This document shows positions 1 to 31,993 of a stretch of 38,545 nucleotides of DNA, piece by piece. Both the position numbers and the translations under genes were made by a program. Source of the stretch: Candidatus Saccharimonadota bacterium (GTDB lineage Bacteria; Patescibacteriota; Saccharimonadia; Saccharimonadales; Saccharimonadaceae); the NCBI GenBank assembly GCA_017480095.1, contig JAFVBG010000006.1:1-38545 (forward strand), given 5' to 3'. Within the stretch, counting starts at the first letter, position 1. Every line of letters begins with the position of its first letter. The notes under the pieces are model-generated. The model made no database searches and was not told where the DNA came from. It saw only the letters and a program-made list of their open reading frames with translations.

Positions 1-903
1 TCCAAGCACTTTACTGCGTACCCTGGTTCGGTCCTCCACTGCGTGTTACCGCAGCTTCAACCTGCTCATGGTTAGGTCACCCGGTTTCGGGTCTAATACT
101 GCCGACTTGTCGCCCTGTTCAGGCTCGCTTTCACTGTGGCTCCATCATCTGACTTAGCCTCGCCGACAACATTAACTCGCTGGATCGTTCTACAAAAAGC
201 ACGCCGTCACCCCCGAAGGGGCTCCGACACCTTGTAGGCACTAAGTTTCAGGCTCTATTTCACTCCCCTCCCGGGGTTCTTTTCACCTTTCCATCACTGT
301 ACTTGTTCGCTATCGATCAATCAACATATTTAGCCTTGGCAGGTGGTCCTGCCGGATTCAAACAGGGTTTCTCGTGCCCCGTCCTACTTGATGTTAAGAT
401 ATCATAAGCCTATGACCATTTCGCTTACAGGATTTTCACCTTCTGTGACGCACCATTCCAAGTGCTTCAGCTATGATCAACGGATTGTATCTTATGCCAC
501 TCAGTTAACGCTGTTGGTTTCTATGTAGAGAAGTGAAACTAAAGTTGACTGCTCTACATAAAAAATATCTTAAATCGCAACCCCTTTAACAACTCAGGCC
601 GTTAAACCGTTAGGTTGTCTTAAGGTTTGGGCTGTTCCAATTTCGCTCGCCACTACTTTCGGAATCATTGGTTATTCTTTTTTCCTCAACCTACTAAGAT
701 GATTCAGTTCGGCTGGTTCCCGTCTCATTATCCTATGTGTTCAGATAATGGCAACATAGTATGACCTATGCTAGGTTTCCCCATTCGGAAATCCCCGGAT
801 CAATTCTCGTTCTCAGATCCCCGAGGCTTATCGCAGAGTCCTACGTCCTTCATCGGTGTTGATTGTCAAGGCATCCACTATTAGTGCCCTTATATACCTT
901 TTT
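1..903 (-). rRNA. 23S ribosomal RNA, 5' portion (3' part lies outside the window)
   Basis: The reverse complement reads through the conserved 23S 5' domain. The 5' terminal segment ending in GTGGATGCC lies near 871-903, the GAAAAGAACCCC stretch near 270-290, and the GGAGGACCGAACC segment near 25-37. The 5' end at about 903 comes from alignment by eye with E. coli and B. subtilis 23S, so it is good to a few bases. The segment is roughly 100 nt longer than the matching E. coli part. Much of the excess falls in a helix extension near 520-560, where ATGTAGAG and CTCTACAT pair. No 16S gene lies upstream on this strand. Small ORFs inside it are spurious. Confidence 0.97.
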
Positions 904-22196: not shown

Positions 22197-22383
22197 GTGG
22201 GTCCACATTCTCGTGCCGCTGTTTGCATCTTTCCACCTGTTTTGAGTTTTTTGGCTCCTCCTCAGGCCAAAATCGCCCCCAGTTTCGCAAGAGCCGGGGG
22301 ATTTTCTATGTATTTTCTGGACTTTTGTATTTTGGACCGCCAGGATTTTGCATTTCGGACCGCTAGGATTTTCGCAAGAAAAT
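22197..22383. other. Gene-free stretch with a GC hairpin
   Basis: No credible gene here. CCCCC (22276-22280) and GGGGG (22296-22300) form a hairpin with T-rich flanks on both sides, possibly a second terminator. A short tandem repeat lies at 22329-22374. ORFs drawn through it lack start signals. Confidence 0.5.
22329..22374. repeat. Two copies of a 23-bp tandem repeat
   Basis: ATTT-GGACCGC-AGGATTTT-GC occurs at 22329-22351 and again, slightly diverged, at 22352-22374. Parts of a third, poorer copy can be seen before it. Confidence 0.6.
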
Positions 22384-25427: not shown

Positions 25428-27176
25428 CTACTGCTTACCCTCGTAAGTTTCACCGGCGAACCAGACCTCACCAGTGCTTTTATCACGGATTAAGAACACG
25501 AACGGCTTATCAAAGGTAATGTCAATCGTCTCGACTGGCACATCCCAAAGGTATTCAAAATCACCTCCGCCAGCGCCGCGCCCACCAGCAACAACCGTAA
25601 CTGCGGCCGCCTTAATCCCAGTGTTCGAGAAGTCGATATTTGCCTTGTGGATGGCGTCGAGGATAGAAAGTTTTGGCTCGCCTTCTGCAGTCGTGAGCAT
25701 CGCCGAAAGGTCGGCAGTGCTTTCTTCAAAGATATCTTTTACGCCCAGCTCTTGCAAGTCGGCTTTCAGATTGAGGCTGTAGTCAAAGCTGAAAAACGGT
25801 ATTTTGCCAGTGATTTTTGTCACTACGCCGTCTTTCATGTTCTCAAGAACTGGCTCTTTAAGGCTGGAAATAATGTTCGATAGCTTTTCTGCGTTAGTAT
25901 TTGTAACGAACTTCTGCAAATCCTCGTTCTTTGGCATGACTGCGACGTATTGGAGGGTCGAGCCATCATACTCTTTGAGATCTTTGGCAAAAACCTTCAC
26001 CTCGTCAGTATCATTAAAATAAAAGTCAGTCGAAACATCGGCGCGACCATAGTTTGTTTTTAGCTCCTCCATATAGCCATCAATATATTTATCAGCATCT
26101 GGCTCATATACACCTGGGTCCATAGCTACGATTTCCTGAATTTCGGCACTGTTATACCATTTTTCGTATTCAGCTTTGACGGTATTTCTGATATATTCCT
26201 CGCCGAGTTCTTTGATGATGTCATAACGGTTAAAACTACTACCAATTTGCGCAGCAGTTGACTGCGCTCCATTAAAGTCCATTGTGCCATATTTTTCGTC
26301 GATATACGGCACTGAGTCACGGTAATTCTCGTGCTCATATCTGACTTCGTATGACTTATTTGGGACTTTACTATCTTTTTCAAGATAGCTAAACTGGAGT
26401 TTGTAGTTCCAGTCCATATCAATCGCCAGGGCGTTGATTAGAAGGAAGTAGGTATCGCCAACCACCTGATCATCCGACAAGAGATTCTTAATCTGCCCCA
26501 AAGTTTGCTTTTCAATCCAATTATTCGCGCTCAAAGCAGAGGTGAACGGGTCAAAAATAACCTCAGCACCATAGCCCTTCTTGAGAGTGGTGATATAATC
26601 TGGAATCAGGCGTGCCTTGATATCGTTTTTAACAAAGAAAGCATTAGCGAGCGAACGATTGGCACTGTTTAGATAACTTTTGGCTTTGTAATCTCCTAGC
26701 AGATTAGTAATCTGCGCCTTGGAAGTGCCACTAGTGCCATCTGCCAACATGGAAAGTGCATATTTGATAGAAAGTGGACTGTAGATTTTATTTTTCTCAT
26801 CTTTCTCAAGATTGAGGAAGGCAATATCAAAATCACTCAGACCATTCCCCACTAGACGCAACTCCGACTCTTTCACTTCTGGCTCAGGAGTTGGTTCGAC
26901 AGAATCAGCAACTTGGGTGTTGTTCTGATTTTGTAGCAGGATAACCACCGCTACGCTTCCGCCAATCGCTAGGACAAGGAAACAGATCAGAGCGATGACA
27001 AGAGGCTTTTTATTCTTTTTAGCTGGAAGGGTGATTGCTGGCTCTGCCGTCTCTGGGAGATCTAGGTTTGGCAATTCCAGGTTAGGCTCTTCTGCCGGAG
27101 TGTCTGGATTTGGCAACTCTACTGGCTGCGTATTTTCATTTGTGTTATCAACTTGATTTTCTGATTCCATTTTCAT
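25428..27176 (-). CDS. Membrane-anchored serpin-family protein
   Basis: A 582-residue protein. An acidic, proline-rich cytoplasmic tail (1-55) and one TM helix (about 58-82) precede an extracellular serpin domain (from about 110). Serpin landmarks are IYSPLSIKYALSMLADGTSG (131-150), LINALAIDMDW, and the reactive-loop hinge GIKAAAV starting at 520. KPFVFLIRDKSTGEVWFAG closes the fold. An extra segment of about 90 residues near 285-390 is unusual for the family. The loop GGRGAGGGD is glycine-rich; by spacing the scissile bond lies near R533, but I am unsure. Such proteins trap serine or cysteine proteases. Confidence 0.88.
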   Translation of the reverse strand: MKMESENQVDNTNENTQPVELPNPDTPAEEPNLELPNLDLPETAEPAITLPAKKNKKPLVIALICFLVLAIGGSVAVVILLQNQNNTQVADSVEPTPEPEVKESELRLVGNGLSDFDIAFLNLEKDEKNKIYSPLSIKYALSMLADGTSGTSKAQITNLLGDYKAKSYLNSANRSLANAFFVKNDIKARLIPDYITTLKKGYGAEVIFDPFTSALSANNWIEKQTLGQIKNLLSDDQVVGDTYFLLINALAIDMDWNYKLQFSYLEKDSKVPNKSYEVRYEHENYRDSVPYIDEKYGTMDFNGAQSTAAQIGSSFNRYDIIKELGEEYIRNTVKAEYEKWYNSAEIQEIVAMDPGVYEPDADKYIDGYMEELKTNYGRADVSTDFYFNDTDEVKVFAKDLKEYDGSTLQYVAVMPKNEDLQKFVTNTNAEKLSNIISSLKEPVLENMKDGVVTKITGKIPFFSFDYSLNLKADLQELGVKDIFEESTADLSAMLTTAEGEPKLSILDAIHKANIDFSNTGIKAAAVTVVAGGRGAGGGDFEYLWDVPVETIDITFDKPFVFLIRDKSTGEVWFAGETYEGKQ

Positions 27177-27195: not shown

Positions 27196-27270
27196 TGGTA
27201 CCCCGGGTTGGAATCGAACCAGCATTGTATCCTTAGAGGGGATATGTCCTATCCGTTGAACGACCGGGGC
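27196..27270 (-). tRNA. tRNA-Arg(UCU)
   Basis: A 75-nt cloverleaf with anticodon loop CTCTAAG (anticodon TCT), acceptor GCCCCGG/CCGGGGT with a G1-U72 wobble, A73 and encoded CCA. The T stem has one C-A mismatch. Its 5' end is repeated twice upstream. Confidence 0.92.
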
Positions 27271-27450
27271 GAGTGAGGAGAAGGCGTTTTTGAAAGTTTA
27301 CTTTCAAAAACATCTTCGACGAACGAGCTCTGGAAGGCGAAGCCTACCGGGGCGAGTGAGGAAAAAGCGTTTCAAAAGCTTGCTTTTGAAAACATTTTTT
27401 CCGAACGAGCCTCGGAAACCGTATGGTTACCGGGGCGAGTGAGGAAAAAT
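27264..27450 (-). repeat. 83-bp tandem repeat array in the tRNA-Arg leader
   Basis: CCGGGGCGAGTGAGGA begins at 27264 (the tRNA 5' end), 27347 and 27430, an exact 83-bp period. The units are diverged, yet each keeps two hairpins whose arms change together: GTTTTTGAAAG/CTTTCAAAAAC in one and AAAGC/GCTTT in the other, and GGTAGGC/GCCTTCC against GGTAACC/GGTTTCC. Such compensation points to a conserved RNA structure in the pre-tRNA. Confidence 0.8.
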
Positions 27451-27460
27451 CCTCCTCTAT

Positions 27461-27466
27461 ATTATA
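27461..27466 (-). promoter_or_regulatory. -10 box of the tRNA-Arg transcript
   Basis: TATAAT with extended TGG on the minus strand. It predicts a pre-tRNA leader of about 185 nt that includes the whole repeat array. Confidence 0.65.
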
Positions 27467-27527
27467 CCATACTTTAAGGATTTTTTCAGAGATTACTCGC
27501 CCAAAACCAGAATGGTATTTCTTTTAC

Positions 27528-31301: not shown

Positions 31302-31993
31302 ACCATTGGGATTTGCTTCGCTTCAAAAAGCACCGTCGGTACCGCTGGAGGCGGAGTAAAATCAGTTGGCTTCAGAGGATACTTGATTTTAGTCTGATAC
31401 TGACGAATTAACTGCTGACCGAGTTGCGATGTATAGTGCCTATCTGTCAATAACAACTTCAGTGCAAATTGCTTTTGCAAAATGAGATAAAAACTATCGG
31501 GTGGGTTCTTCGCTTCAATTAGCTTATGCACAATGGCCGAGCTAAGGTGGAACGGCGGATTGGCAAAAACTTTATAATGACACTCCGGCAAATCTAGCTG
31601 CAGAAAATCTTTCTCGGCAAGATAGACCGTAGCGAGGCGCGGGCTTTTAGACTGAATCGTATTAGACTTCGCAGTTTTTACAGTTTTTACAGTTTTTGCA
31701 GCTTTTGGATCTCCCGACTGATTTATAGGCTCAGTAGGGTTTAAATCAGCATAATCCCGCACCATAATTCCCTGTTTTTGAAGATTTTTACGTAACTTAG
31801 TGGCAGTCTGCGTATCTGGTTCAACCGCAATTACGGTGCGACAGCGCTTGGCCAGCGCCGAGGTGATCACCCCAGAGCCAGCACCAATATCAACCACCAT
31901 ATCACGCTTCTTGATATTAGAATGACCAATCAACATCAGCGCCAGTCGAGGGCTACGCAAGAAGTGTTGAGATAGTAGATGGTTGCGTGCCAT
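31298..31993 (-). CDS. rRNA adenine dimethyltransferase family protein (KsgA/Erm-like)
   Basis: A 231-residue SAM-dependent methylase. LSQHFLRSP near the N-terminus and VVDIGAGSGVIT (about 34-45) are typical of KsgA and Erm. The catalytic motif is NPPF (in VFANPPFHLSSAIV); KsgA usually has NLPY and Erm N(I/L)P(F/Y). It is shorter than KsgA (about 270) and carries a lysine/threonine-rich insert encoded by a 9-bp tandem repeat near 31671-31706. It may dimethylate 16S A1518/A1519 or 23S A2058. Starts 3 bp after the hisS stop codon. Confidence 0.82.
   Translation of the reverse strand: MARNHLLSQHFLRSPRLALMLIGHSNIKKRDMVVDIGAGSGVITSALAKRCRTVIAVEPDTQTATKLRKNLQKQGIMVRDYADLNPTEPINQSGDPKAAKTVKTVKTAKSNTIQSKSPRLATVYLAEKDFLQLDLPECHYKVFANPPFHLSSAIVHKLIEAKNPPDSFYLILQKQFALKLLLTDRHYTSQLGQQLIRQYQTKIKYPLKPTDFTPPPAVPTVLFEAKQIPMV

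What the first reader, a model, noticed from the sequence alone, without database searches (positions are those of the whole stretch)
27264..27466. Array of 83-bp covarying hairpin units copied from the tRNA-Arg 5' end
CCGGGGCGAGTGAGGA, the reverse complement of the tRNA 5' end and its immediate leader, recurs at an exact 83-bp period (27264, 27347, 27430). The two full units differ at many bases, yet two hairpins per unit keep pairing because both arms change together. Drift in junk DNA would not do that. The only good promoter lies beyond the array, so the units would be transcribed as an approximately 185-nt pre-tRNA leader holding two decoy 5' ends. It could control RNase P cleavage, act as a stable RNA in itself, or sense tRNA level. 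I know of no such element.
Basis: partly seen in the sequence, partly recalled or inferred. Interest (0 to 1): 0.78.

Follow-up and report, generated by a model that had tools for sequence, protein, structure and literature searches.

The report
tRNA-start double-hairpin repeats of Patescibacteria
The repeat in front of this tRNA gene is one case of an apparently unreported kind of DNA element that recurs at the start of many different tRNA genes across the tiny Patescibacteria, each copy usually carrying a duplicate of the first seven letters of its own tRNA; what it does is not yet known.

Summary
The 83-bp array exists (two units plus a third start) directly upstream of tRNA-Arg(UCU). Blast finds no other copy in this genome, but the same architecture precedes Lys(CUU), Glu(CUC) and Asp here, and many other tRNAs across Patescibacteria. 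Each unit = copy of that tRNA's own nt 1-7, short stem-loop, imperfect complement (hairpin 1), CRYTCG, hairpin 2, CTCRYTY, tRNA G1. In 122 non-redundant units chosen without using the copy, 63% carry the exact own-tRNA 7-mer (0.2% with other tRNAs' 7-mers). Loci with and without a unit show an insertion at the tRNA 5' end. In one complete genome about 12 of 45 tRNAs carry it, and every full-length copy of the hairpins searched lies at a tRNA. Pairing is strongly conserved, but mismatches point to the opposite strand: A.C 60 versus G.T 17 on the tRNA strand (acceptor-stem control 0 versus 62). So the RNA-leader reading is only partly supported. Best guess: a tRNA-5'-end-specific palindromic DNA element, carried passively in the pre-tRNA leader. 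No Rfam family, antisense-promoter enrichment, required Y1 transposase or paper was found. Mechanism is inferred.

The parts
27196..27270 (-). tRNA-Arg(UCU); nt 1-7 GCCCCGG are the acceptor 5' strand that is duplicated
   Evidence: ARAGORN; Rfam RF00005
27271..27276 (-). leader TCACTC in front of tRNA G1 (CTCRYTY motif)
   Evidence: motif statistics
27277..27320 (-). hairpin 2 of the unit next to the tRNA
27320..27325 (-). linker CGTTCG of unit 1; its GT can pair with AC of the leader
27327..27353 (-). hairpin 1 of unit 1: copy GCCCCGG (27347-27353), stem-loop, near-complement CCAGAGC (27327-27333)
27354..27359 (-). leader TCACTC of unit 2, in front of the copy in unit 1
27360..27402 (-). hairpin 2 of unit 2
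27402..27407 (-). linker CGTTCG of unit 2
27409..27436 (-). hairpin 1 of unit 2: copy GCCCCGG (27430-27436), stem-loop, near-complement CCGAGGC (27409-27415)
27437..27454 (-). GAGGATTTTTCCTCACTC leader before the outer copy; looks like the end of a further truncated unit
27461..27489 (-). promoter-like site CTGAAA-17-TATAAT with TG before the -10

Best explanation
The array belongs to a Patescibacteria-wide family of roughly 70-85-bp double-hairpin units that sit exactly on the 5' end of tRNA genes. A unit is an insertion between the original leader and the tRNA that duplicates tRNA nt 1-7 (plus T8). Its left copy pairs with a near-complement (hairpin 1). A second hairpin follows, flanked by CRYTCG and CTCRYTY, and then the intact tRNA. 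Shown here: this architecture, the own-tRNA copy, the insertion position, the pairing, the recurrence at many tRNAs, and in one complete genome the confinement of all full-length copies found to tRNA 5' ends. Inferred: the unit is kept and spread mainly as a palindromic DNA element whose bottom strand folds; on that strand the conserved linker mismatches read as tandem G.A pairs and hairpin 1 often has GNA loops. Inverted-repeat template switching probably keeps the complement matched to the tRNA and the copy matched to the complement. In RNA it would ride as a passive pre-tRNA leader, with hairpin 1 tying up the duplicate acceptor strand so that it does not compete for the tRNA 3' strand, and RNase P cutting at the usual Y|G site.
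For: Own-tRNA 7-mer in 77 of 122 units versus 0.2% null; complement at least 6/7 in 61% versus 7%. The copy stops at nt 7-9 (match 0.87, 0.77, then 0.21 at nt 8, 9, 10) and the first copy lies where tRNA +1 normally lies relative to the -10 (median 13 versus 12 nt). Orthologous Arg(UCU) loci with and without a unit align through the upstream gene and promoter up to the tRNA. Linker and leader covary as base pairs in all four Watson-Crick combinations: 94 of 112 both paired, null mean 54, maximum 70 in 20,000 shuffles. Hairpin 2: 16 of 17 pairs with double changes, covariation score 0.547 versus 0.204 shuffled, 0 of 500 reaching it. Strand test: hairpin 2 A.C 60 versus G.T 17, p 9e-7, 43 versus 11 elements; acceptor control 0 versus 62. 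Hairpin 1 triloops: 31 of 53 of bottom-strand GNA type versus 4 of sense GNA type. Genome G452: 14 of 14 hits to its hairpin 2 sequences at E below 0.001 are in front of tRNAs; near-identical hairpins precede Trp, two Ala and Arg tRNAs; tandem, often identical 73-74-bp units. More than one copy at 19 of 102 loci.
Against: No mobility protein is identified: Y1 transposase PF01797 is in only 8 of 166 genus genomes and absent from this one. Units in most genomes are too diverged in hairpin 2 to show recent spread. The match of the copy to exactly the acceptor strand suggests a tRNA-level constraint that a pure DNA element need not have. In some units copy and complement pair perfectly but do not match the tRNA (G452 Met and Ile, G428 Asp and Lys), so the tRNA-to-complement-to-copy chain is not universal. 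The strand asymmetry could in part be mutational, although hairpin 1 in the same leader does not show it.
Confidence: 0.4

Rival explanations
1. Functional pre-tRNA leader RNA: the precursor can fold two ways, with copy:complement plus a normal acceptor stem, or with the complement pairing the tRNA 5' strand (one long hairpin with hairpin 2) and the copy pairing the tRNA 3' strand. The balance would control RNase P cleavage or tRNA supply.
For: The two folds are within 2 kcal/mol in 50 of 109 units; the second is favoured by more than 2 in 13. The complement matches tRNA nt 1-7 at least as well as the copy in most units by one count. Units sit in front of intact tRNAs, also inside operons (Ile-unit-Ala, Ser-unit-Met). 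Structure is conserved across the phylum.
Against: Near-equal energy follows automatically from the copy being identical to tRNA nt 1-7. When units with differing copy and tRNA are scored conservatively the preference is 10 to 6, not significant. A.C exceeds G.U on the tRNA strand. Presence at orthologous loci is scattered.
Confidence: 0.22
2. Antisense RNA: the opposite strand is transcribed and folds into the selected structure, acting on the tRNA or its precursor.
For: The strand test and the tandem G.A reading of the linkers point to the opposite strand.
Against: Strong -10 sites facing the tRNA from within 150 nt downstream are not enriched (4 of 160 with a unit, 19 of 334 without). Units inside tRNA operons leave little room for such promoters.
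Confidence: 0.13
3. No function: tandem duplication of the tRNA start followed by template-switch repair of the inverted repeats.
For: Template switching can create and maintain hairpins (PMC8794818). Identical tandem copies show active duplication. Hairpin 1 mismatches are strand-neutral.
Against: The same linker, leader and hairpin core (CRYTCG, CTCRYTY, TAAGC..GCTT) recur in many lineages of the phylum, and hairpin 2 shows a strong strand bias, which neutral repair does not predict.
Confidence: 0.15
4. REP-like palindromes moved by a Y1 (RAYT) transposase.
For: Palindromes with conserved foot sequence and a dispersed family within a genome (G452).
Against: PF01797 is absent from this genome and from nearly all carriers in the genus; copies were found only at tRNAs, not between genes in general.
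Confidence: 0.05

Closest known systems
E. coli tyrT repeats / RtT RNA (from memory; not found in the paper library)
   Same: Tandem repeats next to a tRNA gene, each carrying a copy of one end of the tRNA, transcribed with it
   Different: There the copied piece is the 3' end, downstream, and one operon is concerned; here it is nt 1-7, upstream, at many tRNAs across a phylum, with two hairpins per unit
REP / BIME palindromes with RAYT transposases (REP paper PMC3733652 listed, not read)
   Same: Short extragenic palindromes with conserved foot motifs and intragenomic families
   Different: Found only at tRNA 5' ends, in tRNA orientation, with an arm copied from the tRNA; no Y1 transposase needed
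tRNA-upstream-targeting retrotransposons of amoebae and yeasts (PMC5006619, abstract)
   Same: Elements that accumulate just upstream of tRNA genes in compact genomes
   Different: Those are retrotransposons inserting at a distance from the tRNA; these are about 80 bp, non-coding, flush with tRNA nt 1
Template-switch hairpins (PMC8794818)
   Same: A mutational route by which both arms of a hairpin change together
   Different: A mechanism, not an element with conserved motifs and a fixed site

Membership tests
Any Rfam 15 RNA family | score above the family's gathering threshold | tested here: not met
   Only tRNA and rRNA reach it in the window and in 27 carrier loci
E. coli tyrT / RtT repeats | repeat contains the 3' end of the tRNA and lies downstream | tested here: not met
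   Copy is tRNA nt 1-7, upstream
REP-RAYT | Y1 transposase PF01797 in the genome | tested here: not met
   Absent from G000; 8 of 166 genus genomes
REP-RAYT | palindromes dispersed between genes in general | tested here: not met
   14 of 14 hits at E below 0.001 in G452 are at tRNA 5' ends
Selected structured RNA on the tRNA strand | paired positions conserved with double changes | tested here: met
Selected structured RNA on the tRNA strand | G.U tolerated, A.C avoided on that strand | tested here: not met
   A.C 60, G.T 17; control acceptor stems 0 and 62
Mobile insertion with target duplication | empty site lacks the unit and has one copy of the duplicated target | tested here: met
Mobile insertion with target duplication | dedicated recombinase or transposase | tested here: inconclusive
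   only Y1 was searched, and it is not required
Mobile insertion with target duplication | observed movement between sites | not testable with these tools
   shared hairpin 2 within G452 is suggestive only

The most novel reading that the evidence does not exclude
A previously unknown class of mobile or domesticated element, dedicated to tRNA 5' ends in Patescibacteria, whose bottom strand folds as single-stranded DNA into a long hairpin closed by the tRNA's own acceptor strand and is recognised by an as yet unknown enzyme, re-tailoring its arm to each tRNA it enters; or, if RNA-level, a bistable pre-tRNA that switches between two acceptor stems.
Probability: 0.3. Interest if true: 0.9.

Novelty: categorically new. 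Interest (0 to 1): 0.78.

Why it matters
It would be a phylum-wide feature of tRNA genes that has apparently gone unremarked, in bacteria with very small genomes where every non-coding stretch is of interest. It gives a natural experiment on how a seven-base acceptor copy and its complement follow a tRNA sequence over evolution. It may point to an unknown site-specific DNA element or to an unknown step in tRNA maturation in Patescibacteria.

Tried and rejected
Own-genome blast with the array alone suggested a unique locus; that was misleading because the copied arm changes with each tRNA. Phage carriage: 0 viral contigs with the pattern. Y1/REP transposition: not supported. Antisense promoter downstream: not enriched (one search was the same script failing). 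Idea that CRYUY linkers pair with a fixed GAGUG in RNase P RNA or another RNA: dropped when linker and leader proved to pair with each other (RNase P RNA located). Claim that the complement is selected to fit the tRNA rather than the copy: first count 33 to 8 shrank to 10 to 6 with a conservative choice, so it is not used. The first linker assignment mis-placed some motifs and was redone (one search replaces for that count). Near-equal energy of two folds is a consequence of the duplication and is not counted as evidence. A tree of the Arg(UCU) flank was too poorly resolved to count gains and losses. Integron attC sites were considered from memory only; the GTTRRRY box does not fit the linker by eye, and this was not tested further.

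Full report
What was checked. The window lies in an 813-kb, 98% complete genome (G000); that it is a Saccharibacterium is inferred from named records carrying the same loci as its congeners. The only promoter-like site on the tRNA strand lies beyond the array.

It is not unique. An array-only search of 174 genus genomes gave a match in G172, which turned out to be a similar array in front of a different tRNA, Lys(CUU), with copies of that tRNA's own 5' end. Inspection of tRNA leaders then showed the same build in G000 itself at Lys(CUU), Glu(CUC) and Asp(GUC), so 4 of 45 tRNAs in all, and at Arg, Phe, Glu, Lys, Ala, Ile and Met tRNAs of relatives. A model of hairpin 2 with flanks and the first 14 tRNA bases (R1) found it in 48 of 166 genus genomes; in a search of 295 genomes of the order only 5 genomes outside the genus matched. 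A pattern scan of 85,000 genomes gave 90 stretches; my own estimate of chance matches is about 7. Named hits are nearly all Patescibacteria (Saccharibacteria, Kaiser-, Adler-, Nomura-, Zambryski-, Berkel-, Pacei- and other Parcubacteria), while the few from other phyla lack hairpins and copies. A second model (R2) found it in 26 of 380 genomes drawn over the phylum, 21 of 313 genera. Both models contain tRNA sequence, so they cannot by themselves show that the element is confined to tRNAs.

Anatomy, on the tRNA strand: original leader; copy of tRNA nt 1-7 (plus T8); a stem-loop, often TAAGC-NNN-GCTTN; a near-complement of nt 1-7; one or two bases; CRYTCG; hairpin 2 with a four-base loop (CNNG in 49 of 112); CTCRYTY; tRNA. 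In 122 non-redundant units selected by flanks only, the exact own 7-mer is present in 63% against 0.2% when other tRNAs' 7-mers are used. The copy ends at nt 7-9; T8-A9 is ambiguous because the element consensus also begins TA. Linker and leader pair with each other: their variable RY dinucleotides occur in all four Watson-Crick combinations, 94 of 112 fully paired against a shuffled mean of 54 and maximum of 70. G227 and G197 show the flip GT/AC to AC/GT at the same Lys locus, and G187 shows it between two units of one array.

Insertion. At the Arg(UCU) locus several species share upstream gene and promoter but differ in the unit; the alignments place the unit between leader and tRNA. The first copy lies where tRNA +1 lies in tRNAs without a unit. 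Presence is scattered, with too little resolution to count events.

Which strand. If the leader RNA were the selected molecule, G.U should be tolerated and A.C avoided, as in the acceptor stems of the same tRNAs (62 and 0). Hairpin 2 shows the reverse, 17 and 60 (p 9e-7; 43 versus 11 elements, p 1.4e-5; both parts of the set agree). Hairpin 1 is neutral (32 and 37). On the opposite strand the conserved C.U mismatches of the linkers read G.A, in the arrangement 5'-YGAR-3'/5'-YGAR-3' that, from general knowledge, forms stable tandem G.A pairs, and hairpin 1 loops are often GNA. The linker mismatch bases were partly fixed by the search pattern, but units picked by their copy show mostly the same leader bases. 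Promoters for an antisense RNA are not enriched, so single-stranded DNA is the likelier form; this is inference.

One complete genome. G452 (569 kb, fetched whole) has about 12 of 45 tRNAs with a unit. Near-identical hairpin 2 sequences precede Trp, two Ala and Arg tRNAs while hairpin 1 is fitted to most of them. All 14 hits with E below 0.001 lie in front of tRNAs; the one weak, partial hit elsewhere (E 0.009, 23 bases) is what noise would give. Units are tandemly repeated, often identically. Met and Ile there have well-paired hairpin 1 stems that do not match the tRNA, so fitting is common, not universal.

Alternatives. Two mutually exclusive precursor folds are near equal in energy, but this follows from the duplication itself. 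Whether the complement follows the tRNA or the copy is unresolved. Co-variation in both arms need not mean selection, because replication template switching can do the same (PMC8794818). Y1 transposase is not required, viral contigs lack the pattern, Rfam has no family for it, and paper searches found no description (the library lacks most subscription journals).

Verdict. I file it as a new kind of element with unknown function, with a tRNA-5'-end-specific palindromic DNA element as the best but unproven account.

Noticed in passing
G428 loci L305, L351, L354; L092: Copies of a longer tRNA 5' part (acceptor plus D-arm) stand in front of intact Ile, Thr, Arg(UCU) and Met tRNAs; possibly a relative or precursor of the units.
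   Followed up: no
L014, L028; G452 Arg(CCT) at C5:18150-18224: Leaders with hairpin 1 and a short linker but no hairpin 2.
   Followed up: no
window 25428-27176 (-): The gene just downstream of the tRNA encodes a 582-aa protein with a serpin domain (PF00079, E 2e-46).
   Followed up: partly
L007-L035, L146-L179: The acceptor stem of tRNA-Arg(UCU) turns over fast within the genus (GCCCCGG, GCCGCCA, GGGGTCG, GGGCTCG, GGGGCCG, GGGTCCG, GGGGCAG) while the body stays similar.
   Followed up: no
L315 and L320 (G428): tRNA-Asp and tRNA-Lys(CUU) share an identical hairpin 1, GCGTCCCGATGTCCATCGGGACGC, that fits neither tRNA exactly.
   Followed up: no
window 22323-22372 and 31672-31706: Short tandem repeats of 23 and 9 bases.
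   Followed up: no
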